From positions 620,001 through 684,000 of the forward strand of contig NZ_CP033040.1 of NCBI RefSeq assembly GCF_004293625.1: a stretch of DNA of 64,000 bases. Direction: 5' to 3'. Of this stretch, positions 10,817 to 64,000 are shown piece after piece. This DNA comes from Thiomicrorhabdus indica (GTDB lineage Bacteria; Pseudomonadota; Gammaproteobacteria; Thiomicrospirales; Thiomicrospiraceae). Each line of letters begins with the position of its first letter. The stretch's first letter is position 1. Below the pieces are notes generated by a model. It saw nothing but the letters and a program-made list of their open reading frames with translations. It was not told where the DNA came from and did not search any database. The position numbers and the translations under genes were made by a program.

Positions 10817-13228
10817 CTAAGCCATGACGACACGGTTACGCCCATTTTGTTTGGCACGATATAAAGCATGGTCAACGTGTTCTAGCACTTGTTCGGCATT
10901 TTGCCCTTTTATAAATTCACTGATACCAATACTAACGGTTTGGTTTATCGATTTCGGAAAGCTTTGCAATTGCACTTCAGAACAGATTTTTTCTGCTAAA
11001 TGATAGGCTTGATCATTGGTGGTGTTCGGGCAAATGATTAAAAATTCTTCTCCGCCCCAACGACCAAAGGTATCACTGGAGCGGATGACTGTATTGACCC
11101 AAGCGGAAAACGTAATTAATACTTCATCGCCAATTAAATGGCCGTGAGTGTCATTGACCTGTTTGAAGTAATCCAAGTCCATTAGAATGATTGAAAACTT
11201 TTGGCCGTAACGATGAGCTCGTTCAATTTCTTGTGTAATGACTTTATCCAGATGCTTGCGATTATAGACGCCCGTTAAATGGTCCGTAACAGAAAGACCG
11301 GACAAGGAGCGATTGGTTTCTTCAAGTTGCTGCTGGGTTTCTTTGAGATCTCTGTTAATACGTTTCAAGCGAAGATTGTAGTAACTGGTCAATAAAACAA
11401 TAAAAAGAATTGGTGCGATAATCCAAGTAATGGTTTTCCAGTTAATCATGCTTGGATAGGCGATTTTTAGCCAAGGATCGGTAATGTCATTACGGACGGC
11501 ATGAGGCATATTTTCAATGACTTTATTAATAATGGACTGTAGCTCGGGCCAATTTTTACGAACTGCCATGTGTATACCTGATCGAAAAGGGGTTTCTCCA
11601 GATATTTGTAAATGGGTATAGTGATGTTTATTGATGTAATAAGTGATGATGGCCGCATTATCAATATAACCAAAGGCTTCTCCACTCGAAACCAGTTTTA
11701 ATCCTTCTTCGGGAGAGGAGACGAGTTTCAGAGGGATGTCAGGAAAGTGCTGCTGCATATTTGCTTGCGAGGCGTAATCTTTAACGACGGCGATGGTTTT
11801 GTTTTGCAGTTGATTTAGGTTGCTGATAAACCCCTCGTTGCGTTGCGTGGCAATGACCATGGGGAGTTCAAGATAAGGGTCTGTGTATAGACTGTATTCG
11901 CTTCTTTCATCGGTATAAAAAACGGCTGAATACATGTCAAGTTTCCCAGATTCCATTTGGGTGACTGATTCGCTCCAACTGAGTTGAGTGAAAGGGATAA
12001 ATTCGATACCGGTTTTATGGCTGATGTAATCTAAAAATTTAGGGGCTATGCCAACAAATTGTCCTTGTTCATTTATGAATTCGAGAGGAGCCCAGTGTGC
12101 ATCCACCGCAACTTGAACTTGCTTATGGTTTTGCATCCATTCAATTTCTTTGGAAGTGAATTGTTTTGATGCCATTCGGCTTGTTTGCTGAGAGTTTTCA
12201 ATAGTTTTTGGGTTGTGAATAAAACCATGTTGACGTAATAAGTTTTGAGCGTATTGCAACCGGCCGGTATCAAAATGTCCGAGAGGGAAGTTGACCAAAT
12301 CAATAGAGTTGCGAACGGCTTCAGCTTCTTTTCGAAGCCCTTCAAAAGTTAAATTAGGGTTTAGGTAACTTTGGATATAGTGGATGACTTTCGTTGGGTG
12401 TTCTAATGCATACTCCCACCCTTTTAAGCTTGCTCGTTTAAATGCTTGAACTTGTGCTGGATTGGACTGAATTTTGAGATTGCTGGTCAGTAGCATGTCG
12501 CCGTATAAATCGACACCATAATGTTGTGGTAAAAAGCGATTTAGCTGCAAGCGCTGTTTTTTGTGGCGCTGAAATTGCTGATGAATAAGAGAGCTTAAGC
12601 TTCCACCGAATGCCGGTGATTGAGTCTTATTGATTTGTGAAATATCAAGAGAATGGCGATTGCGGATCAAATTTGGTTTGATTTTTAGTTCTTTAAACAT
12701 TAACAGTAAAGTCAAAGCGTTTGGCTCTTCGGAAAAAAGCGCCACTTTTTTGTAATTTAATTGGTAAATACTGTCTAGATCTTGGTGCTTTAAGGAAAAC
12801 AGCGCCTGATGCGAATGTTGAAAAATCGGTGCGACAATATTGATGAGCTTTTGTCGATTCGGGTCTAAGAGCAGAGAAATGTCTGAAATCGCAAAGTCTG
12901 CCTGACCTTCAATAATTGTCTGAGTGGCGTTTTGAGATCCACTATTGGGAATGATTTCTACGTTAAGGCCTTCTTGTTCATAAAAGCCTTTAATTTGAGC
13001 TGCGTAGTAGCCGGCAAATTGAAAACGATGTTCCGCAGATAATTGTAATTTGACTCTCTCAAGAGGGGAGTCGGCTTGAGGTTCTGAAAGGCTGGGTGTA
13101 CTGGCAAAGCTTGCATTGAGAGGAAATATTAATCCGAAGAAGAACGATCCGACGAACAGTAGCAGCGAGAGAGCCCCTAAGAAAAATCTTTTTTTGAGTA
13201 AGGGTTGCTGTGAAGTGATTAGCGGCAT
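10817..13228 (-). CDS. Membrane diguanylate cyclase with two periplasmic binding domains
   Basis: The 803-residue protein begins with a signal-anchor or signal peptide (about residues 14-42). An NMT1/THI5-like binding domain follows (about 55-330; FQFAGYYAAQIKGFYEQEGL), then a family 3 solute-binding domain (about 365-600; VQVAVDAHWAPLEFINEQGQ). A transmembrane helix near 613-632 and a short coiled coil lead to a C-terminal GGDEF domain (about 645-803). The active site is RWGGEEF, so it should make c-di-GMP. Two different binding modules in one receptor suggest it integrates two periplasmic small-molecule signals. Ligands are unknown. The palindrome at 12259 encodes Thr-Gly-Arg. Confidence 0.87.
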   Translation of the reverse strand: MPLITSQQPLLKKRFFLGALSLLLFVGSFFFGLIFPLNASFASTPSLSEPQADSPLERVKLQLSAEHRFQFAGYYAAQIKGFYEQEGLNVEIIPNSGSQNATQTIIEGQADFAISDISLLLDPNRQKLINIVAPIFQHSHQALFSLKHQDLDSIYQLNYKKVALFSEEPNALTLLLMFKELKIKPNLIRNRHSLDISQINKTQSPAFGGSLSSLIHQQFQRHKKQRLQLNRFLPQHYGVDLYGDMLLTSNLKIQSNPAQVQAFKRASLKGWEYALEHPTKVIHYIQSYLNPNLTFEGLRKEAEAVRNSIDLVNFPLGHFDTGRLQYAQNLLRQHGFIHNPKTIENSQQTSRMASKQFTSKEIEWMQNHKQVQVAVDAHWAPLEFINEQGQFVGIAPKFLDYISHKTGIEFIPFTQLSWSESVTQMESGKLDMYSAVFYTDERSEYSLYTDPYLELPMVIATQRNEGFISNLNQLQNKTIAVVKDYASQANMQQHFPDIPLKLVSSPEEGLKLVSSGEAFGYIDNAAIITYYINKHHYTHLQISGETPFRSGIHMAVRKNWPELQSIINKVIENMPHAVRNDITDPWLKIAYPSMINWKTITWIIAPILFIVLLTSYYNLRLKRINRDLKETQQQLEETNRSLSGLSVTDHLTGVYNRKHLDKVITQEIERAHRYGQKFSIILMDLDYFKQVNDTHGHLIGDEVLITFSAWVNTVIRSSDTFGRWGGEEFLIICPNTTNDQAYHLAEKICSEVQLQSFPKSINQTVSIGISEFIKGQNAEQVLEHVDHALYRAKQNGRNRVVMA

Positions 13229-13359
13229 TGCGAGTTCTCTAAATTACAAAAATGATTTTAGCAAACAAAGACTTAATCACAAGGTGTTATTCAAAAACTA
13301 CCGGTCAAGAAGGGGATTGGATATAGAATAAAAGCTTGTAAGGTTAATGACAGAAAATG

Positions 13360-14094
13360 TTAAAAATCCCCCCAAAGGGCTTGAGCAATCGTTAGCATTG
13401 CCGGGCCGGCAGTTTCAGTGCGTAAAATACGTGGGCCTAGACGCACGGTTGAAAAGCCATTTTGCTCGGCTTTCATTACTTCCTTTTCACTCAGACCGCC
13501 TTCTGGGCCGACAAGAATTGTTACCGGCCGGTCAAGGTTAGGTGGCGGCAAGCTTGCAATCGTATGCTCTGCATAAGGATCACAAACAATTCCAAACTCA
13601 ACGGTGTTATTGGCCAAATATTCTTCGAGAGAAATCAAAGGAAGTATTTCCGGTACAAACGCTCGTCCAGATTGTTCACAGGCATTAATTGCAATGCTTT
13701 GCCATTGTGCTCGGCGTTTTTCAAGTTTATCGCCTTGTAATTTGACATCTACCCGTTCGGTAAACAGTGGTTGAATTGAACCGACTCCAAGCTCGACGGC
13801 TTTTTGAATCGAGTAATCCATGCGATCGCCTTTCGAAATGCCTTGTAGCAAAACGGTTTTTAGAGGGGATTCATTTACAGCGGTTTGAACTTCTTCCAGA
13901 ACAACATTTGCACTGCGACGACTAGTGTGTTGAATGACGGCCGAAGCAAAATGGCCTTTACCATCAAAGACCTCTATTTGGTGTCCGTCTTTCAGGCGTA
14001 ACACGGTTAAGGCGTAATGCGCTTGTTCTTTAGATAATTCAAGTGAGGAGCCAGAAACGTAGCGCTCTGGCAGATAAAAGCGGGAGATTCTCAT
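13360..14094 (-). CDS. rsmE: 16S rRNA m3U1498 methyltransferase
   Basis: RsmE methylates N3 of U1498 in 16S rRNA. The 244-residue product shows RFYLPERYVSG at the N-terminus, the SPOUT-fold knot motif ILVGPEGGLSEKEV and LGPRILRTETA near the C-terminus. Length and motif order are normal. It lies 19 bp downstream of metF on the same strand, so it may be read from the metF transcript. The palindrome at 13523-13532 encodes Asp-Arg-Pro-Val just before the knot. Confidence 0.95.
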   Translation of the reverse strand: MRISRFYLPERYVSGSSLELSKEQAHYALTVLRLKDGHQIEVFDGKGHFASAVIQHTSRRSANVVLEEVQTAVNESPLKTVLLQGISKGDRMDYSIQKAVELGVGSIQPLFTERVDVKLQGDKLEKRRAQWQSIAINACEQSGRAFVPEILPLISLEEYLANNTVEFGIVCDPYAEHTIASLPPPNLDRPVTILVGPEGGLSEKEVMKAEQNGFSTVRLGPRILRTETAGPAMLTIAQALWGDF

Positions 14095-53101: not shown

Positions 53102-54391
53102 TTATTCAGCTTCGCGTTTCACCGCACGATGACCAATATCGGTACGATAGTAAACTTTCTCCCAGTTGACTTTTGCTACACCTTCATAGGCACGTTTTTG
53201 TGCTGCGGTCACATTTTCGCCCAGTGCTGTCACACACAATACTCGACCACCGTTTGTCGTAACATCGCCGTTTTCATTGCTTGAAGTACCAGCATGGAAC
53301 ACTTTAGTATCGTCTGAGTTGGCATCTTCAATGCCGGTAATCACATCACCTTTTGGATAGGCATCTGGATAACCACCGGCCGCCATGACAACACCTAAAG
53401 CCGCGCGAGAATCCCATTTCGCTTCAGCAGTATCAAGTTTGCCCTCTAACGCATCTAGACAGTGTTGAACTAAATCAGATTGCAAACGCATCATAATAGG
53501 CTGGGTTTCAGGGTCACCAAAACGGCAGTTAAACTCCAAAACTTTTGGTGCACCGTTCGCATCAATCATTAAACCTGCATATAAAAAGCCGGTATAAGGC
53601 AGACCATCTTTTGCCATGCCTTCAATGGTTGGCATAATCACTTCTTTCATTGCACGATCATGGATCTCAGGAGTGACCACAGGAGCCGGTGTGTAAGCGC
53701 CCATGCCACCTGTATTTGGCCCTGTATCACCGTTATCACGTGCCTTATGATCTTGTGATGTTGCCATTGGCAGAACATTCACACCATCTGCCATAACAAT
53801 GAAACTTGCCTCTTCACCAACCAAAAATTCTTCAACCACCACGCGCGCACCGGCATCGCCGAACTTGTTGCCTTCAAGCATATCTTCAACTGCGGCAATC
53901 GCTTCATCAATGGTATCGGCCAAAATAACGCCTTTACCAGCCGCTAGCCCATCGGCCTTGATAACAATCGGGGCGCCCATTTCTTTAATGTAATCGACAG
54001 CCGGAGCGATTTCCGTGAACACTTGATACGCAGCAGTAGGAATATTGTGTTTGGCTAAGAAATCTTTTGAGAATGCCTTTGACCCTTCAAGTTGCGCAGC
54101 GCCTTTGGTTGGACCAAAACATTTCAAACCAGCGGCCTCAAATGCATCAACCACGCCCAAAACCAATGGAACCTCAGGGCCAACAATCGCTAAGCCGATG
54201 TCGTTGTTTTTTGCAAACTCAACCAAACCGTCTAAATCTTCCACGCCAATTGCCACATTGGTTAAATTCGGCTCAAGGTCCGTTCCTGTATTACCCGGTG
54301 CAACAAAAACCTGCTCTGCCAGTGGCGACTGTGCCGCTTTCCATGCCAAAGCGTGCTCACGCCCACCACTACCGATTACCAAAATATTCAT
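53102..54391 (-). CDS. purD: Phosphoribosylamine-glycine ligase
   Basis: PurD joins phosphoribosylamine and glycine in purine synthesis. The 429-residue ATP-grasp protein starts MNILVIGSGGREHALAWKAAQ from the ATG at 54391, which follows AGGAT. A start 21 bp upstream is less likely. IKADGLAAGKGVILA, DHKARDNGDTGPNTGGMGAY and LEFNCRFGDPETQ are the typical motifs. It lies 83 bp downstream of cas1 on the same strand, so CRISPR-derived read-through could reach it. Confidence 0.97.
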   Translation of the reverse strand: MNILVIGSGGREHALAWKAAQSPLAEQVFVAPGNTGTDLEPNLTNVAIGVEDLDGLVEFAKNNDIGLAIVGPEVPLVLGVVDAFEAAGLKCFGPTKGAAQLEGSKAFSKDFLAKHNIPTAAYQVFTEIAPAVDYIKEMGAPIVIKADGLAAGKGVILADTIDEAIAAVEDMLEGNKFGDAGARVVVEEFLVGEEASFIVMADGVNVLPMATSQDHKARDNGDTGPNTGGMGAYTPAPVVTPEIHDRAMKEVIMPTIEGMAKDGLPYTGFLYAGLMIDANGAPKVLEFNCRFGDPETQPIMMRLQSDLVQHCLDALEGKLDTAEAKWDSRAALGVVMAAGGYPDAYPKGDVITGIEDANSDDTKVFHAGTSSNENGDVTTNGGRVLCVTALGENVTAAQKRAYEGVAKVNWEKVYYRTDIGHRAVKREAE

Positions 54392-54474
54392 GATTCTTAT
54401 CCTGTTTTGCACTTCAATAAATTTGCGCTAATTATGAAGGATTTGGGCAAACACTGCAAAAAAATGCGGCTAAC

Positions 54475-55353
54475 TCAGCTTAAACAGTGTTTAAGTGTTT
54501 CAAATAAATAATCCAAAGTTTTATTGTTTTGAATATTTTCAATACAAAGCTTACGCATTTCAGATCGACTCAAGCCGTCTGCTGCGGCTTTCATCGCAGC
54601 AGGCATAATCACGCCATCTTTAATAATATCTGCAACATCAAACACCATTGCCCCACGCCGAGTATAGCCATGGTTAACCGCCATTTGGAAAGGAAGCCCA
54701 TAAGTCCAAAGCACGACAGAAGCTAATCCATAAGCGAGGTAATTCCCATTATCTAAATAAGAATTAAATCGGTCATTTTCGTCTTTTTGACCAGGTTTGC
54801 GAGCGAATTCGCAACCGAGTAATTGGGCATTGAGTTGATAAAGTGAGGAGGCAAATTTGCCTTCGGCTTCCATGATTTGCTGATTCGTATTTGCTAAGGT
54901 TATTTTCTGCTTAAAGGTGTCACTGATTTTATTGAGTGAGTCGAAACGATAGCCAAACTTCTTCCAAGCTTGGAGTACAAAATCGGCGCGATAGATTTGG
55001 AAAACTTTCGCCATTTCAAGACGTTTTTCCTCATCTTGCCAAATTTTTAGATAGCTAAAAAAGTATTCATTGGGACGGTACTCAGACATAGAACCCATAA
55101 AAAGCGGTGAACCATCTCCGCCAGTAAATCCAATCATAACGCCAGAATCTCCGAGTTGGCGAACAGCGGCTTGAGTAATGCTAGTTCCACTGCCGAGTAA
55201 AATCACGGAAGTGTTTTTGACTGGAATGCTAAAAAATTGCACGACTTTCTTTTGTGATTTGGAATACACAATATGTTCATCCACCTGTGAAACACGGCAA
55301 TGTTCCAGAAAATACAAGCCCTGACGTTTGGATGGAAGAATATCGATAGGCAT
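54475..55353 (-). CDS. cas1: Type I-F CRISPR integrase Cas1
   Basis: Cas1 inserts new spacers. The 292-residue protein aligns by eye with I-F Cas1 through SKRQGLYFLEHCRV, LLGSGTSITQAAVRQL, GGDGSPLF and NHGYTRRGAMVFDVADIIKD. The active-site residues correspond to Glu164, His228 and Asp242 (Asp239 nearby). It is about 30 residues shorter than the Pseudomonas protein, mostly at the N-terminus and C-terminal tail. AGGAG precedes the ATG. It lies downstream of the array and is separated from cas2-3 by it. Confidence 0.95.
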   Translation of the reverse strand: MPIDILPSKRQGLYFLEHCRVSQVDEHIVYSKSQKKVVQFFSIPVKNTSVILLGSGTSITQAAVRQLGDSGVMIGFTGGDGSPLFMGSMSEYRPNEYFFSYLKIWQDEEKRLEMAKVFQIYRADFVLQAWKKFGYRFDSLNKISDTFKQKITLANTNQQIMEAEGKFASSLYQLNAQLLGCEFARKPGQKDENDRFNSYLDNGNYLAYGLASVVLWTYGLPFQMAVNHGYTRRGAMVFDVADIIKDGVIMPAAMKAAADGLSRSEMRKLCIENIQNNKTLDYLFETLKHCLS

Positions 55354-55482
55354 AAAAAGGCTCCTAAAGAAGTTGAGAAAAGGAAGGTTAGATGTTGTGG
55401 TTTATTGTTTCGATAAAGGTTAATCACTTTTAAATTAATAGGGTATTTTGATACGTTTGACTGATTTTTACCGGCCGGTATC
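55354..55482 (-). other. Spacer between array end and cas1
   Basis: This 129-bp AT-rich gap lies after the last, degenerate repeat and before cas1 in the direction of transcription. It contains an exact TACCGGCCGGTA palindrome (core 55470-55479) only 3 bp from the array. No separate cas1 promoter is obvious, so cas1 may depend on the pre-crRNA transcript. Confidence 0.5.
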
Positions 55483-58090
55483 TTTTTAGATCACCTGTGT
55501 GGTGATGAACGTTGGTGGTCGGAACAAAAGCGAAAAGCCGCCTTTCTAAATCACCTGTGTGGTGATGAACCGATGGGACAACTTTTAATTTAGTTGATGG
55601 TTTTTCTAAATCACCTGTGTGGTGATGAACATTAACGGTGGCATGAATCTTTTCGCCAAATATTTCTAAATCACCTGTGTGGTGATGAACAATATTACGT
55701 CGAAGCATTCGGCGGCTCTGCATTTCTAAATCACCTGTGTGGTGATGAACTTGAATTTACGCCTGAAGAAGCTGAACGACTATTTCTAAATCACCTGTGT
55801 GGTGATGAACATTAACAGAGCTACAACAATTGCAGAAGTGGATTTCTAAATCACCTGTGTGGTGATGAACCAAAAGCCGCAATGATATTAATTGCTTTAT
55901 GTTTTCTAAATCACCTGTGTGGTGATGAACAACACTTTGCACAAAGACTACATTGCCTTTGCTTTCTAAATCACCTGTGTGGTGATGAACGGTAGCCTGC
56001 ACCACCAGCTTTGTTTATCATTTTTCTAAATCACCTGTGTGGTGATGAACTCTTCAGGATACTCTAAACCTCCAAAGTCAATTTTCTAAATCACCTGTGT
56101 GGTGATGAACCGCAACTCGAAAAAGAATGTCAGTGAGTTTTCTTTCTAAATCACCTGTGTGGTGATGAACTAGCGAACTACTTTCAAGCCGGTATGGGCG
56201 GCTTTCTAAATCACCTGTGTGGTGATGAACATTTATTTGTTTCTGAGTTGTCGGCCACGGGTTTTCTAAATCACCTGTGTGGTGATGAACTCAATCAAAT
56301 TGTTGATGCGAATAAATCGGTTTTTCTAAATCACCTGTGTGGTGATGAACACGAGCTATTGGGTGCGAAACATGGCCACAAATTTCTAAATCACCTGTGT
56401 GGTGATGAACAGTAGATTCAAGTTTTGCACGATCGATATCATTTTCTAAATCACCTGTGTGGTGATGAACAAAAATCCACTTACATCCATGCTTGGATAT
56501 ATTTTCTAAATCACCTGTGTGGTGATGAACACAGCAGACGGCACTGCAGGGGCGATTTATACTTTCTAAATCACCTGTGTGGTGATGAACAAGACCAGAT
56601 TGATTTAGCAAAAAAGCTACTTTTTCTAAATCACCTGTGTGGTGATGAACTGTGCCAGGTAAACCAAGAAATTTCAGCATAATTTCTAAATCACCTGTGT
56701 GGTGATGAACCGCAACAAAAAAGCAAAATTCAACGCGGCTCATTTCTAAATCACCTGTGTGGTGATGAACCGTTGCCGTAACCTTGTTGGGGTTGTTGCT
56801 GTTTTCTAAATCACCTGTGTGGTGATGAACTCCTCTCCCTGTTTGACCCGCAAAACGCACAATTTCTAAATCACCTGTGTGGTGATGAACCCTTAAATGA
56901 CAAAACCCTTTAACATAGTCACTTTCTAAATCACCTGTGTGGTGATGAACCTTGGGGAATTCGTCAGTTTCAATTTTTGGGTTTTCTAAATCACCTGTGT
57001 GGTGATGAACGCAAACCCATCTCCAGACACTTGAACCGGAGCTTTCTAAATCACCTGTGTGGTGATGAACGAACAGATACGATTTTAGGGGCTTTGTCTT
57101 TTTTTCTAAATCACCTGTGTGGTGATGAACGGTTAATCGTCTGCAATATGGTCAAGCATTATTTTCTAAATCACCTGTGTGGTGATGAACATCCGGCCTG
57201 CGGCTTCGGCAATGGCGGCATTTTTCTAAATCACCTGTGTGGTGATGAACGTTCTGGCAACCATTGACCCAAACACTCATGCTTTCTAAATCACCTGTGT
57301 GGTGATGAACAATTGCTGAATGGTTTTCCAAGAATTTCATTATTTCTAAATCACCTGTGTGGTGATGAACGTTCTTATTTAAACTTGCCGACCATTGTAG
57401 AATTTCTAAATCACCTGTGTGGTGATGAACCGAGTACCGCATCGCCATTTTCATCAACAAGCTTTCTAAATCACCTGTGTGGTGATGAACTATTGATAAA
57501 AGTACCAACACCTGATGTTGATTTTCTAAATCACCTGTGTGGTGATGAACATCAAAGCGACATGGATAGCGCCTATCAAGACTTTCTAAATCACCTGTGT
57601 GGTGATGAACAATGCAACAATCAATGCGCAAGGCGTGCAAGTTTTCTAAATCACCTGTGTGGTGATGAACGCCACCCGATTGTCTGGCCAAAACCGACTC
57701 ATTTTCTAAATCACCTGTGTGGTGATGAACTGGCAGATGCGCTCATGCGCACGCTGGATTTATTTCTAAATCACCTGTGTGGTGATGAACGTTGTAACCG
57801 CCGCCATAGTGTTTCACTAGATTTTCTAAATCACCTGTGTGGTGATGAACGTGAATCATTAGAAACGTGTTTTCCGGCATACTTTCTAAATCACCTGTGT
57901 GGTGATGAACCGCACCGGTTAAGTTACGGCCAATAAATTCTTTTTCTAAATCACCTGTGTGGTGATGAACGCTGCCATCGCTAACAGTTGGCGGCGTGCA
58001 AATTTCTAAATCACCTGTGTGGTGATGAACCAGCACCTAAAAAAAATCAAAATGCAGTCAAATTTCTAAATCACCTGTGTGGTGATGAAC
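55483..58090 (-). CRISPR. Type I-F CRISPR array, 44 repeats and 43 spacers
   Basis: Repeats are 28 bp and every spacer is 32 bp, giving an unbroken 60-bp period. Read on the minus strand each repeat is GTTCA, stem TCACC, loop ACACA, stem GGTGA, tail TTTAGAAA, the same register as the canonical I-F repeat. The tail would give the 8-nt crRNA 5' handle after Cas6f cleavage. The repeat at 55483-55510 differs at two positions, marking the old end; the leader is on the right. No spacer duplicates were noticed. The leader-proximal spacer (58031-58062) is the newest. Confidence 0.98.
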
Positions 58091-58252
58091 TATAGAAACG
58101 TCAAAGATTATCGTTTTGATTCAAACGATTATCAATTTTTTCGTTAAAAACGAATGGTTTTTCCAAATTGTTAAAGAGCTTATAAAAATCAATAGCTTAG
58201 AGTTTTTTCGATTTTTGATTGTATTTTCTGTTTTAGAGTGATGCGTATTCTT
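58091..58252 (-). promoter_or_regulatory. CRISPR leader with IHF consensus sites
   Basis: This AT-rich 162-bp segment lies between cas2-3 and the leader-proximal repeat. AATCAATAGCTTA at 58187-58199 matches the IHF consensus (WATCAAnnnnTTR) perfectly. TATCGTTTTGATT at 58109-58121 matches its complement with one mismatch, 19 bp from the first repeat. GATTATC is directly repeated at 58106 and 58127, with an inverted TCGTTT/AAACGA between. IHF bends I-F leaders during spacer integration, and the layout fits that. A precise pre-crRNA promoter was not resolved. Confidence 0.75.
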
Positions 58253-61200
58253 TTATAAGCATCCTAAGTATTCATTGTATTGATTGCCTTCTTTGTCGCG
58301 ATATCTAAGGATGCGCATTTGCTCAAAATAATGCTCGGTTTGTCCTTGATAGTAAAAATCAATAATGTCTAACAATGGTTTGGCGATGAGTAAATAATCT
58401 GTGTGTTTCGGTTCTTGTTGGTCGAATGTGATATTAAGTGCCTCAGCAGATAAATGATTTTCAAGCGGTTGAAGGCTGAGCTGTCCCAGCGAATAGGTTA
58501 GTTGTACTTCCGCGTTTTGAGGGTCGCTTTCTCGAAACGGTAGGGCTTTTTCTTGTGTGGCTGAATAGGTGACTTCGGAATCCTGTAGAAAGCCTTTTTT
58601 AAAGCCATCGTCATGTTGAATAATTTCGTTGAAACTTTTGATTTCAATTCCCTTGGCAAGGTTTTTGGATTCATCATCGAGAATAATGCCGGCATTGATA
58701 AAGTCATCTTCGTCGAATTCAAATAATTCAGTAAATGTTTGTTCATTGTAATGAGCTGCCTTTTGTCCCAAGCCATCACAAAATCCAGGGTATTGATAGG
58801 GATTGCTTTGATTTTCAATGTCAAAACATTTCAGGCTTCTTTCAAGCACATAGCAGCCATTGTGTTTGGGGGTTTTTCGGTGGCGGTATTGGCGACCAAA
58901 GGTTTGAATAATACTTCGGTGGTCGCGTGGTTCGTTAATAATCCAATCAAAATCAAAATCTCGTCCCGTTTCAATAATCGGAGAAGCGATGACTAGCACA
59001 AAAATATGGGTTTTATTTTTCTGTTTGGCTTCTTGTTTTAATTGTTGGAAGCAGTCGGTCTCTTTTAAAAGAGGTTTTGTATCTTTACGAGTAAGTAGCT
59101 GTGCGAGTTGATGTTCTTGATAGGCTTTTTTAATTTCAAGATTTTTTGAGTGATAAATTTCAACTTTAAACAGCGCATTTTCTGGGATTAAATGGTTAAA
59201 GCTTCCGTCTAAAATCATAGCGCCCAATTCACGTATATATTGAACGTTGGCAAGTTTGATTAATCCTGTGCTAAACGATGTTTTTTCAATGGGTGTGGCA
59301 AATCTATCAAATAGTTCAAAGGTTTTTTCCAGCACATTTTCATAGACCTGTTCTAATGTGAAGTCCTGTTCAAGCGGTAATATTTTTAAGCGGCGTTTGC
59401 GGTCATTGTGTTGAATGAGTTGTTTAAACTCTTCAAAAAATGCATCGATAATTGTTGAGTTGGCAGCGTTTTCATCCAACAAGACGGTTTGATTAAGATC
59501 GGGTTCGTGAGTGTAGAAGCCTTGATAAATTCGACAAGGAATTTGTTTAATTTGGCAGTGTAGTTGGTAGCCTGTTTGATAGGCATGATTAAGTTCTTTT
59601 GCCAACCGGTTTGAAATGGTTGCAGAACTGATTAGGACTTTGCGACCATAGAAACCGCTGAGATAGATCAAACGTAAGATACTGGGGAGTTGCTGAGGTT
59701 GGTAGTTGTCGATTTCATCAATAATTAAATCTGAACTCATAATTCTTAACAGATATTTTGAGGCATTCGACTTGGTGCTGTTGATGCCTGAAATTAAGTA
59801 ATCAATGGTGCAACTTAAAACCGGTGCATCGAGAATTTTTGCCAGTTTTGGTTGAAATTTATTGTCTGCAAATTGCAGAAATTTGGGCAAGTCTTCTGAG
59901 AGCTTTTGTTCGTAAATTAACTCGGTTTGTTGTTCTTCCTCTTGCGCGTCTTCTAATACACTTTGTTCAGAATTCTTTACCGGCCGGTTTAGTTTTTGAT
60001 GGGTTTGGTTTTGTTCAAAAAGCTCTCGGCTATGAGTGGAACCAATAATCCCGGCGATTGCTTCAGGGTCAATTTTGAGAAACTCTTGATATTCTTGATA
60101 GGTTTGTAAGGTTAAGCTTTTTAAACCAAGTAAGCAGCTAAAACGCAAATCTTGATTTTGATTGATTGCGCTCATGATTTTTGGGGCGGCAATGGTTTTT
60201 CCAGCGCCTGTTTTCGCCATTAGGCAGCCAATAAAGCCGTAATACATTTCATTTTGGCTGTTTGGGTTGATGGTTTTTGTAATGGAATCTACAGCATTGT
60301 TTTGCCAGCCAAAGTTGTGTTGCAGTGCTAGTGGTACCCGTTTTAGCAGTTTTTTAGGCGCATAGGCTAAGTGCGAAAAGGCCGGTTCTTGCGAGCCAAA
60401 AGCGAGTTGAAACAAGTAGCGTGTGGTTTGATTGGCGGTTTTGCTGACGCCCAATAAATGTTCTTCAAGGGTTTGATTGTAGTATTGGTTGTCTTGATGA
60501 GTGTAAAGATTGGCATAAGGTGTTTGATGTTGATTCCAACGTTCTTGCTGCATGTTTTGAGAAGAAAAATGTTGGTCTGCCAAAATAAACGCTGGGCGTA
60601 GTAGGTATTGCGTCAGTTTATCTAAAGTGCTGTTCTCGGCTAAAATACTTTCTAAATAGGATTGATGTTGTGAGTCTTGATAAATTTCCAGCAATTTCTG
60701 AAAACTATTTTGTAACTTCTCTCGATAGGTTGCATCGTTGATTAAAAGTGACTGCTGTTGATAAGCTTCAATCAGTTTTGTGTGTTGTTTTGCATCATAG
60801 GCTCGACCATAGGTTTCGTTTGCACCGTAAATATTCCAAATTAGGCGATGATGGGACAAGGTGATTTGCAAAATGGCTTCAAAGAGCCCTCGGTTTGTTT
60901 GAAGTTCTTTACTGACCTTATAGCAGGCAAGAAAATCAAAGTTAGCAATTTGTTCAATAATTGTTTGAATTTGTTCTTCAAAAGGCTTTTTAGAGTGACC
61001 TTTGAACAAAGGACTGAATAAATCATACGAGAGTTTTTCATGCCGAATCGGGTCGGCATTGTGCAAGGCTTTTTTTAAGTTTGGGTCGTCTGGATTTAGT
61101 GAGAGCTTATTTTGAAAATAGTAAAAACCCTTTCCAATATCATGCACTAAGCCTGTGATGACATTCAGTTGTGTTAAGAATTTTTTTAGATCATTCAGGT

Positions 61201-61513
61201 GTTCGGGAATGGCGAAAGATTCAAATTTTTTGCTGGTATAACGAAATATAAATTCGCCATTTTCACTGTAATTCTCAGCACTGCCTACAATCCATTCCAA
61301 TTCAATTCGAGAACGCGTTGTAATTTTATAGCACGCGACTGTCGTATTCTTGCTCGCTACAGAATTCAGCTCGGCTTTGAGCGCTTGCAACCCTTTTTCA
61401 GTGATAGCGCCCGAATAAACATTTTTGCCAATATTAGGAAGATATTGTGCAAGGATTCTGCGGCTTAGGCTCAATGCTTTCTTTTTACTTTCATTGATTA
61501 AAATGATGTTCAT
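58253..61513 (-). CDS. cas2-3: Fused Cas2-Cas3 nuclease-helicase (type I-F)
   Basis: The 1086-residue protein has an N-terminal Cas2-like domain (about residues 1-95), an HD nuclease starting at LVHDIGKGFYYFQNKL (His124-Asp125), and an SF2 helicase with GAGKT near residue 434, DEID near 599, SSATIS, and QTFGRQYRHR near 873, plus a C-terminal region. It both degrades DNA recruited by the Cascade complex and joins Cas1 in adaptation. A palindrome copy at 59979-59988 encodes Asn-Arg-Pro-Val in a charged linker (about residue 509). It is divergent from csy1. Confidence 0.96.
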   Translation of the reverse strand: MNIILINESKKKALSLSRRILAQYLPNIGKNVYSGAITEKGLQALKAELNSVASKNTTVACYKITTRSRIELEWIVGSAENYSENGEFIFRYTSKKFESFAIPEHLNDLKKFLTQLNVITGLVHDIGKGFYYFQNKLSLNPDDPNLKKALHNADPIRHEKLSYDLFSPLFKGHSKKPFEEQIQTIIEQIANFDFLACYKVSKELQTNRGLFEAILQITLSHHRLIWNIYGANETYGRAYDAKQHTKLIEAYQQQSLLINDATYREKLQNSFQKLLEIYQDSQHQSYLESILAENSTLDKLTQYLLRPAFILADQHFSSQNMQQERWNQHQTPYANLYTHQDNQYYNQTLEEHLLGVSKTANQTTRYLFQLAFGSQEPAFSHLAYAPKKLLKRVPLALQHNFGWQNNAVDSITKTINPNSQNEMYYGFIGCLMAKTGAGKTIAAPKIMSAINQNQDLRFSCLLGLKSLTLQTYQEYQEFLKIDPEAIAGIIGSTHSRELFEQNQTHQKLNRPVKNSEQSVLEDAQEEEQQTELIYEQKLSEDLPKFLQFADNKFQPKLAKILDAPVLSCTIDYLISGINSTKSNASKYLLRIMSSDLIIDEIDNYQPQQLPSILRLIYLSGFYGRKVLISSATISNRLAKELNHAYQTGYQLHCQIKQIPCRIYQGFYTHEPDLNQTVLLDENAANSTIIDAFFEEFKQLIQHNDRKRRLKILPLEQDFTLEQVYENVLEKTFELFDRFATPIEKTSFSTGLIKLANVQYIRELGAMILDGSFNHLIPENALFKVEIYHSKNLEIKKAYQEHQLAQLLTRKDTKPLLKETDCFQQLKQEAKQKNKTHIFVLVIASPIIETGRDFDFDWIINEPRDHRSIIQTFGRQYRHRKTPKHNGCYVLERSLKCFDIENQSNPYQYPGFCDGLGQKAAHYNEQTFTELFEFDEDDFINAGIILDDESKNLAKGIEIKSFNEIIQHDDGFKKGFLQDSEVTYSATQEKALPFRESDPQNAEVQLTYSLGQLSLQPLENHLSAEALNITFDQQEPKHTDYLLIAKPLLDIIDFYYQGQTEHYFEQMRILRYRDKEGNQYNEYLGCL

Positions 61514-61658: not shown

Positions 61659-62945
61659 ATGCAAATAAGTATTGATGAAATATCAACAGGTGTCTTAATT
61701 GATCAGTTGAATTTTAAGCAGGAGCTAAAAGACAAAATCCTTAAAGATTTGCAAAAATCTCAACAGTGCCTGTTTAAGGCAAAAAAAATTGAGGATGTCG
61801 TTAAGCCGTTATATCGGGAAGGGGTAGAGTGTTCTCCCGATAATGTCAAAGGTTTTATCTATCTGAGTAATTTTGAAAAATTGCAGGATCCTGTTTTAAC
61901 CATTTTTGAAAGTCATTGGGTGCTTGAATTTAATGAAATAAAAAATCACCAAACCGTTTTCCCTGAAAAAACTCGAGGTTGTCATAACTTTACCAATCGC
62001 GGGTTTATTAACACTGAAGATTCTAGCTTGTTTAAGCCTAATGCCAGAGCAAGTTTAAAGGGGATTAGTTCGTTTACTTTAGGAGTTAATCAACGAACTT
62101 TTGCGCCTTACGATGGTTCGCAAAGTGGTGTTTATAAGCATTTAAATTTGGTATTAAATAATCAGAGTCTTTATGTGCATTTGGCGAATCATTCGGAATT
62201 AGAAGCTGAAATTTTAATGAGTCTGCAAGCGATTTATGGCAAACCTTATGTGCAATCCTTGCAAGATTATTTAAGTCATCCAGCGCCTGAAATAACTGAG
62301 GTTGATGGATATTCAAAACAAATTACAGTGCCTTTTAATAATGGCTATGTTTTGGTATCGCCAGTGTTTAATCACCATAATTTGCAAGTGTTTAGTCGAT
62401 TGCGCTATGAGAAAGGTAAGTTAATAGATTTGAACGAAAAGTTTTTGGGCGGTACTAAGCCTGGCAACGTTTCTTATACGAATTTATTGGGAGGGGGAGC
62501 TTTAAACCAATTTAAGATGCCGTTTCCAAAAGAGAGTGCTGCTAATCAACGTGCTTTATATGTGTTGGCAACTAAAGGACATTTAGTTTTATCTGAGCTA
62601 CGTGGGCTTTTGAATCAAGCTGCAAAAGTTATGAGTAATTCTGAGATACCTAAATTGCAACGCGAAAAAATGGCACAACAATCCTCTTGGTTGCTTTTGC
62701 AATTTGCTGTTTCTCAAGTAGAGATGTTGTGGTTGAATCAAGAAAATTTCCCCATAAAGCCGGCATTGTTGCAGATTTTTCAGGGGATTTTTGCTCCAAA
62801 ATCCAAAGGATTAGGAAAAGCCGACGTGATGGCATTTTGGCAGGAATTAATTTTGCAATCGATGCGAAATCAAGACTATGCCAAAGCGTGTTTAACCGAG
62901 CAGTTTGTTACAGCGTTAAAAGAAGAGGTGACTCGCTATGCCTAA
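61659..62945 (+). CDS. csy1: Type I-F Cascade large subunit Csy1/Cas8f
   Basis: Csy1 forms the tail of the I-F surveillance complex with Csy2 and contributes to PAM recognition. The 428-residue protein is diverged, but it keeps FLGGTKPGNVSYTN, which corresponds to the GGTKPQN motif of Pseudomonas Csy1. A preceding segment (VPFNNGYVLVSPVFNHHNL) resembles its GSGYHLLAPLF region. The ATG at 61659 follows GAGG; a TTG 15 bp upstream is less likely. It overlaps csy2 by 8 bp. Confidence 0.85.
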   Translation: MQISIDEISTGVLIDQLNFKQELKDKILKDLQKSQQCLFKAKKIEDVVKPLYREGVECSPDNVKGFIYLSNFEKLQDPVLTIFESHWVLEFNEIKNHQTVFPEKTRGCHNFTNRGFINTEDSSLFKPNARASLKGISSFTLGVNQRTFAPYDGSQSGVYKHLNLVLNNQSLYVHLANHSELEAEILMSLQAIYGKPYVQSLQDYLSHPAPEITEVDGYSKQITVPFNNGYVLVSPVFNHHNLQVFSRLRYEKGKLIDLNEKFLGGTKPGNVSYTNLLGGGALNQFKMPFPKESAANQRALYVLATKGHLVLSELRGLLNQAAKVMSNSEIPKLQREKMAQQSSWLLLQFAVSQVEMLWLNQENFPIKPALLQIFQGIFAPKSKGLGKADVMAFWQELILQSMRNQDYAKACLTEQFVTALKEEVTRYA

Positions 62946-63798
62946 GTTATTTTTTGTGATGAAAGACGTACAAGTTGAAGGGGCTAATGCAACTACCAGT
63001 TATTTAACGAATGCTTATCCAACTTCGTCCATTTTAGGTATGGCAGAAGCCTTTGCCTTTCAGCTAAAACAGTCTGATTTAGCGGATGAATTGCTTGAAG
63101 AACCTGTTCAGGCCTTGTCGATTATCAAGCACTTTGAGTTTCAAGCGGGTAAAAAAGCTTTTCCAGCATTTCATAAATCTGGAGGGGCTGCTCATAAAAG
63201 TATGAGTCCGAGTGAGATTACATTGAGTGAATCCTTATGTAATTTTACAGCCACTTTGGTATTTGCGATTTCGTTTCACCGAGGTGTAGACGTTGAGGAT
63301 GAGTTATTGCCGAAGTGGCAGACATTTTTGCAAAGAGCGCGTGTTGCTGGTGGAAAAATCACCAATCTAGAGAAGGTGCAAATGGATTTAGTTTTTCGTT
63401 CTGTCAGTAGTTTAGAAGAGGCATTAACTTATGAAAAAGGTTGGGTGGTTGAAGATGCCAGCGATGAGTTCGAGACAGTGGTTGAAGAGTTTGATGTGAC
63501 CGAAGCGGTTCGTCAGTTTACTTTTACCTACATCGCAGAAGAGACAGTTAATGGTGTAAAGCAGAAACATTACTCTAAAAAACAAAAAGGATGGTATTTC
63601 TTAGATTTACTGGGTTACCAGTTTCTTGAAGAGCCAAGAAAACGAAATGGTACGCGATTTGATCAGCCTCATGTGTTTGCAGAGCCGGTCGTGACCGCGA
63701 AAAAGTTGTCTTACTTTCGTCTAAACCGTTTAGATGAATTATTTTGGCAATGGCATAACGCAAAGGAGAGTGTCTGGTTAACACAAGTTGAATTGTAG
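62938..63798 (+). CDS. csy2: Type I-F Cascade subunit Csy2/Cas5f
   Basis: Csy2 pairs with Csy1 and holds the crRNA 5' handle. The 286-residue protein is shorter than the Pseudomonas one (about 327) and diverged. It shows NATTSYLTNAYPTSSILGMAEA near the start, in place of the SPLTWGFPSP segment, then VAGGKI and a late KGWYFLDLLGYQFLEEP and DELFWQWH. These match the family in order. The ATG overlaps the end of csy1, so they are translationally coupled. Confidence 0.82.
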   Translation: MPKLFFVMKDVQVEGANATTSYLTNAYPTSSILGMAEAFAFQLKQSDLADELLEEPVQALSIIKHFEFQAGKKAFPAFHKSGGAAHKSMSPSEITLSESLCNFTATLVFAISFHRGVDVEDELLPKWQTFLQRARVAGGKITNLEKVQMDLVFRSVSSLEEALTYEKGWVVEDASDEFETVVEEFDVTEAVRQFTFTYIAEETVNGVKQKHYSKKQKGWYFLDLLGYQFLEEPRKRNGTRFDQPHVFAEPVVTAKKLSYFRLNRLDELFWQWHNAKESVWLTQVEL

Positions 63799-63908: not shown

Positions 63909-64000
63909 ATGGCGAAAAAATTACCGACATTACTTTCTTTAACGGGCGCAATTGATCCTTCGCACGCCTTAATGTTTGGCTCATCTGGATTCGATGGGGA
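63909..64000 (+). CDS. csy3: Type I-F Cascade backbone Csy3/Cas7f (partial)
   Basis: Only the first 30 codons are in the window. They read MAKKLPTLLSLTGAIDPSHA followed by LMFGSSGFDG, comparable to the LAFERKLDPSDALM start of Pseudomonas Csy3. AGGAT precedes the ATG. The 110-bp gap after csy2 is longer than usual for this operon. Cas7f forms the six-subunit crRNA backbone. cas6f is expected beyond the edge. Confidence 0.75.
   Translation, partial: MAKKLPTLLSLTGAIDPSHALMFGSSGFDG

What the first reader, a model, noticed from the sequence alone, without database searches (positions are those of the whole stretch)
54475..61513. Type I-F locus with the array placed between cas1 and cas2-3
In the usual I-F locus cas1 and cas2-3 are adjacent and co-directional with csy1-3 and cas6f, and the array follows. 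Here the array and its leader separate cas2-3 from cas1, all three reading leftward, while csy1-3 read rightward from a divergent promoter region. The pre-crRNA transcript points straight into cas1 and then purD, so array transcription could set Cas1 supply. Adaptation and interference genes are on opposite strands and could be controlled separately.
Basis: partly seen in the sequence, partly recalled or inferred. Interest (0 to 1): 0.72.

Follow-up and report, generated by a model that had tools for sequence, protein, structure and literature searches.

The report
CRISPR locus wedged inside purine operon
A complete but rearranged bacterial immune (CRISPR) system has its memory array lodged between two genes that normally sit side by side, and the whole locus lies inside a purine-making gene pair, so memory RNA may run on into an immune gene and then a housekeeping gene.

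Summary
The layout is real: cas1f (54475-55353), a 44-repeat array (55483-58090) and cas2-3 (58253-61513) all read leftward, in the order cas2-3, array, cas1. csy1-csy2-csy3-cas6f read rightward, past the window end. The order is rare: of 153 distinct cas1f loci examined, 143 held both cas1 and cas2-3, and only this one has an array between them. Parts have precedents: csy genes opposite to cas1 in 3 other loci (of 97 scored), and an array reading into cas1 in 3 others. The leader carries a boxA-like antitermination motif that is common in I-F leaders (62 of 86 with at most 2 mismatches, 4.5% of random stretches). I favour a working I-F system whose leftward transcript runs through the array into cas1 and perhaps purD. 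No transcript data exist, and the best promoter-like site in the leader lies downstream of boxA. Csy1 and Cas6f are too divergent for firm confirmation. Verdict: a rare rearrangement of a known system.

The parts
53102..54391 (-). purD, single copy in the genome, downstream of cas1
   Evidence: TIGR00877 589.7 bits over cut-off 288, scanned as 53102-54412; one match in G000
54392..54474 (-). 83-bp cas1-purD gap; one weak promoter-like site (9 of 12), no terminator-like site
54475..55353 (-). cas1f, 292 aa; E164, H228, D239, D242 present; lacks two loops seen in standard I-F Cas1
   Evidence: TIGR03637 338.4 bits over cut-off 150
55354..55482 (-). 129-nt array-to-cas1 gap; no terminator-like or promoter-like site on this strand at the scan's thresholds; Shine-Dalgarno-like AGGAG before cas1
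55483..58090 (-). CRISPR array, 44 repeats of 28 nt, 43 spacers of 32 nt; leader end at 58090, degenerate last repeat 55483-55510
   Evidence: repeat hairpin -7 kcal/mol, z -2.60
58091..58252 (-). leader, 26% GC; one exact IHF-consensus match on the opposite strand; promoter-like TTGATA-17-GATAAT at 58135-58107
58169..58179 (-). boxA-like GCTCTTTAACA, 89 nt before the first repeat
   Evidence: own rRNA leaders carry GTTCTTTAAAA in similar flanks
58253..61513 (-). cas2-3, 1086 aa; HD, Walker A, DEID, SAT and GRQYR motifs present
   Evidence: TIGR02562 477.1 bits, below its cut-off of 565.95; PADLOC Cas3f 495.8 bits
61514..61658 (.). 145-bp divergent region between cas2-3 and csy1
61659..62945 (+). 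csy1/cas8f, very divergent
   Evidence: PADLOC Cas8f 28.5 bits; hhalign 94.2% over residues 161-287; no NCBIfam family; Pfam Csy1 15.6 bits, below cut-off 22.7
62938..63798 (+). csy2/cas5f
   Evidence: PF09614 76.9 bits over cut-off 25; TIGR02565 41.6, below cut-off 154.1
63909..64000 (+). start of csy3/cas7f; the rest of csy3 and all of cas6f lie past the window (L002:11910-12878 and 12945-13502)
   Evidence: csy3 scanned as L002:11907-12878: PF09615 178.8 bits over cut-off 25

Best explanation
This is a complete, sequence-divergent type I-F CRISPR-Cas system whose genes have been reshuffled and which sits between purH and purD. It probably gives ordinary I-F immunity: the Csy complex is made from the rightward operon, Cas1 and Cas2-3 acquire 32-nt spacers at the leader, and Cas6f cuts the array RNA after each hairpin, leaving an 8-nt handle UUUAGAAA. 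My inference about control: leftward transcription (from the cas2-3 side and/or the leader) crosses the array, helped by Nus factors bound at the boxA-like site, and runs on through the 129-nt and 83-nt gaps, which lack terminator-like sites, into cas1 and purD. Cas6f cleavage in the last repeat, which keeps its hairpin letters, would free a cas1-purD mRNA. Shown: gene content, order, strands, insertion between purH and purD, boxA-like motif and its spread in I-F leaders, uniform array. Inferred: transcription, antitermination, co-expression of cas1 and purD, activity.
For: Profiles and motifs for Cas1, Cas2-3, Cas5f and Cas7f. Repeat hairpin. Long uniform array with 43 different spacers. Spacer 35 matches 28 of 32 nt, with CC directly 5', in a TraG/TraD-like gene of its own genome; spacer 19 shares 23 nt with a spacer in the I-F array of relative G025, though 3 nt out of register and with different ends. 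purH and purD adjacent in 29 of 29 relatives' loci looked at. boxA-like motif in 62 of 86 leaders (window included) with at most 2 mismatches against 4.5% of random stretches. No minus-strand terminator-like site in either gap. Papers: a passage of PMC7862264 reports that adding boxA raised array RNA about 10-fold in a synthetic array; passages there and in PMC12691694 cite Stringer et al. 2020 for boxA/Nus protection of CRISPR arrays; that paper itself was not held.
Against: No transcript data. The best leader promoter-like site (10 of 12) would start RNA about 10 nt before the first repeat, downstream of boxA, so such transcripts would lack boxA; only RNA from further upstream would carry it. 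Upstream of boxA the best candidates score 8 of 12. Promoter-like sites of 9 of 12 on the minus strand also lie inside the array (57110, 55910), inside cas1 (55162, 54776) and before purD (54460), and the scan finds no more promoter-like or terminator-like sites than shuffles. 24 of 86 leaders lack the motif at 2 mismatches, and the motif was chosen after seeing the window. No spacer target was found in phages, plasmids or viral contigs, the last tried with 4 of 43 spacers. Csy1 and Cas6f are not firmly identified by profiles. The self-matching spacer has 4 mismatches, one at position 1.
Confidence: 0.57

Rival explanations
1. cas1 and purD each have their own promoter (in the gaps, in the array or inside cas1). 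The array merely happens to lie upstream, its transcript ends within the array or gap, and the gene order has no regulatory effect.
For: Minus-strand promoter-like sites (9 of 12) lie inside the array, inside cas1 and before purD. Expression of long arrays can fall off with distance from the leader (PMC7862264 passages on polarity).
Against: No promoter-like site on the minus strand in the 129-nt gap at the scan's threshold and no terminator-like site in either gap; a boxA-like motif is present. None of this is decisive.
Confidence: 0.35
2. The locus is a relic: an acquired I-F system that no longer takes up spacers because Cas1 is separated from cas2-3 and shortened, or that no longer interferes.
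For: Cas1 lacks two loops present in the standard proteins. Csy1 and Cas6f are very divergent. No exact spacer target found.
Against: All reading frames are open, the aligned acidic and His residues of Cas1 and the motifs of Cas2-3 are kept, and 43 repeats are identical. Thiomargarita (L119, 292 aa) and Thiothrix (L120, 297 aa) have similarly short Cas1 proteins.
Confidence: 0.07
3. The order is a wrong join in the assembly.
For: Long repeats can mislead assemblers.
Against: The genome is one contig, rated 99.99% complete. The array lies between unique flanks, and the outer junctions to purH and purD do not involve the repeat.
Confidence: 0.03

Closest known systems
Canonical type I-F1 CRISPR-Cas (cas1, cas2-3, csy1-csy2-csy3-cas6f, array), the majority arrangement
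   Same: All six genes by position, 28-nt repeats with 32-nt spacers, hairpin and 8-nt tag register (recalled), boxA-like leader motif
   Different: Array and leader between cas2-3 and cas1; csy operon on the other strand; Csy1 and Cas6f barely recognisable
Thiothrix caldifontis DSM 21228 I-F locus (L120)
   Same: Second closest Cas1 found (51%), short Cas1 (297 aa), csy operon divergent from cas1 and cas2-3
   Different: cas1 and cas2-3 overlap, cas1 first; arrays follow cas6f
Thiomargarita sp. MAG RS_1_20 contig (L119)
   Same: Closest Cas1 found (54%, 292 aa)
   Different: cas1 first; a UPF0175 plus PIN pair, not an array, lies between cas1 and cas2-3; no csy gene on the 4-kb contig
   Same: cas2-3 before cas1, csy genes on the opposite strand, array co-directional with cas1 and cas2-3
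   Different: cas1 directly behind cas2-3 (4-nt overlap), array after cas1
   Same: Array reads directly into cas1 (80 bp)
   Different: cas1 and cas2-3 adjacent; effector genes on the same strand upstream of the array

Membership tests
Type I-F (I-F1) | Cas1 of the I-F branch | tested here: met
   TIGR03637 338.4 bits, cut-off 150
Type I-F (I-F1) | Cas2 fused to Cas3 (HD plus helicase) | tested here: met
   Near full-length matches to Cas3f models, 477-496 bits, Cas2b matches within residues 1-80, motifs present; but below the curated cut-off of 565.95 of TIGR02562
Type I-F (I-F1) | Cas8f (Csy1) large subunit | tested here: inconclusive
   28.5 bits to one Cas8f model; hhalign 94.2% over residues 161-287 only; no NCBIfam family; Pfam below cut-off; solved structures: best E 0.0097 (a Cas8); AlphaFold model mean pLDDT 43.6, not usable
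Type I-F (I-F1) | Cas5f (Csy2) and Cas7f (Csy3) | tested here: met
   PF09614 76.9 and PF09615 178.8 bits, cut-offs 25; Csy2 is below the NCBIfam cut-off (41.6 against 154.1)
Type I-F (I-F1) | Cas6f (Csy4) nuclease | tested here: inconclusive
   No PADLOC model matches; Pfam gives only two weak, unrelated families below cut-off; hhalign 21.5%; but right place and size, a His column invariant in the 16-row alignment A3 (H27) and a C-terminal YGLS. That this His is the catalytic one is recalled. PDB hits of A3 reflect its other rows
Type I-F (I-F1) | 28-nt repeat with hairpin and 8-nt 3' tag, 32-nt spacers (register recalled) | tested here: met
   6-bp stem, 5-nt loop; 43 spacers of 32 nt
Type I-F (I-F1) | 5' CC PAM (recalled) | tested here: inconclusive
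   CC beside the one near-full-length match (28 of 32), one case only
Type I-F (I-F1) | usual gene order, cas1 next to cas2-3 | tested here: not met
   order is typical of the subtype, not a requirement for it (recalled)
Subtype I-F2 (I-Fv) | no separate Cas8f; Cas1fv as best match (definition recalled) | tested here: not met
   Cas1f 338.4 above Cas1fv 292.6 bits; a gene is present in the csy1 place
Subtype I-F3 (Tn7-like) | lacks cas1 and cas2-3, linked to Tn7 genes (definition recalled) | tested here: not met
   cas1 and cas2-3 present; neighbours are purH and purD

The most novel reading that the evidence does not exclude
The locus is an operon-embedded immune system: one antiterminated leftward RNA makes crRNAs and, by Cas6f cutting in the last repeat, releases the mRNA for cas1 and for the cell's only purD. 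Spacer uptake and purine synthesis would then be tied to array transcription, and loss of the CRISPR locus would be penalised because purD depends on it.
Probability: 0.12. Interest if true: 0.7.

Novelty: new variant of a known kind. Interest (0 to 1): 0.42.

Why it matters
cas1 and cas2-3 of I-F systems are usually adjacent, often overlapping, and their products form one integrase. A natural locus that separates them by a transcribed array is a test case for whether their co-expression matters and whether array transcription can feed adaptation. The insertion in purHD shows a defence system lodged in a housekeeping gene pair, with no mobile-element gene evident by eye among the neighbouring ORFs listed here.

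Tried and rejected
Structure of Csy1: the AlphaFold model with an 18-row alignment had mean pLDDT 43.6, so no fold search was made. Spacer targets: the array against phages gave only matches at E about 0.8 and against plasmids only 4 records, three of them covering 8-42% of the array at 66-70% identity, as other arrays would; four of the 43 spacers (numbers 2-5) as patterns in viral contigs gave none. Whether the boxA 11-mer is the genome's rRNA boxA: 8 exact copies in the genome (reversed control 1), none with a 16S start in the 1.5-kb flanks held; the rRNA leaders carry a version with 2 differences. Short repeats shared by the two outer junctions: only a 6-mer, so no target-site duplication. 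Rfam: no match in the window. Trees: the window's Cas1 and Csy3 sit on very long branches with unsure placing, so no grouping is claimed. Cas1 in the plasmid collection: 97 records, the best 43% identical; Csy1 there: none. Papers: searches for I-F with purH and purD (0 papers), for an array upstream of and co-transcribed with cas1, for 'between cas1 and' (10 listed), for divergent gene order and for read-through (10 of 25 listed) showed none whose title or shown start of abstract describes this arrangement; only open-licence papers are held. A first genome-contig scan with the single Cas1 found nothing.

Full report
What is there. The window is positions 620001-684000 of a 2.83-Mb single-contig genome. 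Reading leftward from 61513: cas2-3, a 162-bp leader, 44 repeats with 43 spacers, a 129-nt gap, cas1, an 83-nt gap, purD. Reading rightward from 61659: csy1, csy2, csy3 and cas6f, followed by purH on the minus strand. The array is oriented leftward: the AT-rich leader lies at the cas2-3 end and the only degenerate repeat at the cas1 end. It is the only place with this repeat in the genome.

Identity. Cas1 is firmly I-F (TIGR03637 338 bits, cut-off 150) and keeps E164, H228, D239 and D242, invariant in an eight-sequence alignment. Cas2-3, Csy2 and Csy3 match I-F models; Cas2-3 and Csy2 score below NCBIfam cut-offs, though Csy2 and Csy3 pass Pfam's. Csy1 is weakly matched: no NCBIfam family, best 28.5 bits to a PADLOC Cas8f model, and hhalign 94.2% against a profile of relatives over residues 161-287 only. 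Cas6f is found by no PADLOC model and by hhalign at only 21.5%; position, size, an aligned invariant His and a YGLS tail speak for it. A structure prediction of Csy1 failed. The repeat folds into a 6-bp stem with a 5-nt loop, in the same register as the usual I-F repeat (recalled).

How unusual is the order? I gathered I-F loci in four steps. (1) In 62 genomes of the window's family, 14 matched TIGR03637 and 8, the window's included, passed its cut-off; the 7 others were taken and the 6 weaker ones left out. (2) In 369 genomes of the class, 59 others matched the window's Cas1; 40 were taken, and 19 with E above 1e-21, mostly fragments or remote Cas1, were left out. (4) In 398 genomes of the phylum, 36 matched at E of 1e-30 or less; 29 were new. 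Of 157 loci, 4 duplicates were dropped; 153 had cas1 and 143 had both genes. In 139 cas1 comes first and in 4 cas2-3 comes first (the window, L030, L062, L071). An array, meaning three or more exact 22-mers spaced 45-85 nt, lies between the two genes only in the window; in the 27 other loci with a gap above 100 bp no two-copy repeat was found either. The first 128 loci alone gave the same: 1 of 120 pairs, one of them a duplicate. I scanned gap proteins of 8 loci: a Bro-N protein in 3, a WYL regulator in 1, a UPF0175 plus PIN pair in 1, no family in 3. The csy operon lies opposite to cas1 in 4 of 97 scorable loci: the window, L030, L031 and L120 (Thiothrix caldifontis). An array within 1 kb upstream of cas1 and co-directional with it occurs in the window, L074, L192 and L217, and an array of opposite orientation in L195, L221, L222 and L225, against 146 loci with at least 1 kb held upstream (orientation judged from the repeat's end letters). 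So each half of the oddity has a precedent and the combination does not, in this sample. The sample is biased to loci whose Cas1 is close to the window's and to contigs long enough to show both genes.

Relatives. The closest Cas1 proteins are 54% (Thiomargarita MAG, L119) and 51% (Thiothrix caldifontis, L120) identical; no other genome listed exceeded 49%, the window's own aside. The window's Csy1 found no relative outside its own genome among 62 genomes of the order and 369 of the class at E of 1e-3, nor in the plasmid collection; a blastp within the fetched loci gave about 24% identity and 31 bits to the Csy1 of L033 and L034. Trees put the window on very long branches and the tool warned that their placing is unsure, so I draw no grouping from them.

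Insertion in purHD. purD matched in 57 other genomes of the family; loci were returned for 29 of them, and in all 29 purH lies directly upstream on the same strand; the gap was measured in 11 as 44-388 bp. In the window the CRISPR island fills that gap. purD is single-copy in the genome. The 83 nt before purD keep only a few ribosome-site letters in common with relatives by eye. No integrase or transposase stood out by eye among the listed ORFs near the island, and the junctions share only a 6-mer. G+C is 37-42% in the cas genes and 45-48% in purH and purD, with 42.6% for window 1-53000, which is weak support for later arrival.

The leader. It holds GCTCTTTAACAATTTGG, whose first 11 letters are the boxA core used here (core letters recalled), 89 nt before the first repeat. 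The core occurs 8 times in the genome on both strands against 1 for its reversed control, and none of the 8 has a 16S start in the 1.5-kb flanks held. The genome's own 16S leaders carry ATAAGTTCTTTAAAAATATGG, two core differences away and with similar flanks. In 86 distinct leaders from the first 128 loci, the window's included, 47 have a match with at most 1 mismatch and 62 with at most 2, against 0.56% and 4.5% of 8600 random 250-nt stretches of the same loci. Of the 62, 47 sit 114-119 nt and 7 sit 38-39 nt before the first repeat; 23 start within 40 nt of the stop codon of a labelled cas gene, an undercount because cas6f was not labelled in the first 48 loci; in the window the distance to the cas2-3 stop is 73 nt. 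So the window keeps a general I-F leader feature, with cas2-3 taking the place that cas6f usually has. The motif was chosen after seeing the window, so the other leaders are the test. Passages in PMC7862264 report that adding boxA raised array RNA about tenfold in a synthetic array and cite Stringer et al. for boxA upstream of natural arrays; a passage in PMC12691694 states that the rRNA antitermination complex protects CRISPR transcripts. I could not read Stringer et al. itself. In PMC9602844 (passages only) at least 100 bp of leader gave a high rate of acquisition in Acinetobacter, so a motif near -117 may be kept for something other than integration; that is my inference.

Against a simple boxA story: the strongest promoter-like site in the leader (10 of 12) lies between boxA and the first repeat, while upstream of boxA the best candidates score 8 of 12. 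RNA starting at the former would lack boxA. Only RNA arriving from the cas2-3 side would carry it. Other minus-strand sites of 9 of 12 lie in the array, in cas1 and before purD. The scan as a whole found no more promoter-like (17 against 20.6) or terminator-like (5 against 8.2) sites than shuffles, so it is not evidence by itself.

Is it active? The 43 spacers are all different and 32 nt long, and 43 repeats are identical. Spacer 35 matches 28 of 32 nt of a TraG/TraD-like gene elsewhere in the same genome, with CC directly 5', the usual I-F PAM (recalled). Spacer 19 shares 23 nt with a spacer in the I-F array of relative G025, but 3 nt out of register and with different ends, so the two may stem from related, not identical, targets. 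Two weaker matches (26 and 21 of 32) in relatives look like chance. No phage, plasmid or viral-contig target was found (4 of 43 spacers were tried in viral contigs). This favours a recently working system that samples mobile elements of this group, without proving it.

Mechanism. I think ordinary I-F immunity is most likely. The regulatory reading, that leftward RNA passes the array into cas1 and perhaps purD, is somewhat better than even but unproven. Cas6f cutting in the last repeat, whose hairpin letters are intact, would give cas1-purD an RNA end made by the immune system itself; this follows from the sequence and from established Cas6f activity and is the most testable new prediction.

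Verdict. A rare, in this sample unique, rearrangement of a known system in an unexpected place. New variant of a known kind; interest moderate.

Noticed in passing
G000:C1:1851087-1851117 (L203): Own-genome TraG/TraD-like coupling gene matched by spacer 35 (28 of 32, 5' CC), suggesting an integrated conjugative element that the spacer does not fully match.
   Followed up: partly
L036, about 1388-1410 (G025:C6:15388-15410): A spacer in a relative's standard I-F array shares 23 nt with window spacer 19, 3 nt out of register and with different ends; both may remember related elements.
   Followed up: partly
L002:13503-13562: The convergent cas6f-purH gap holds an inverted repeat (GGGTACGAT...ATCGTACCC) that could stop transcription from both sides.
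   Followed up: no
G000:C1:2185063-2185969: A third 16S match is partial (model positions 9-902 in two pieces) while the two others are complete; broken copy, insertion or masked stretch not decided.
   Followed up: no
L051, L058, L143 (gap between cas1 and cas2-3): Bro-N domain proteins lie between cas1 and cas2-3 in three relatives, and a WYL regulator in L056.
   Followed up: partly
purH-purD gaps in L078, L085, L088, L091: In these relatives the purH-purD gap holds similar long imperfect inverted repeats by eye, perhaps a mobile repeat family.
   Followed up: no
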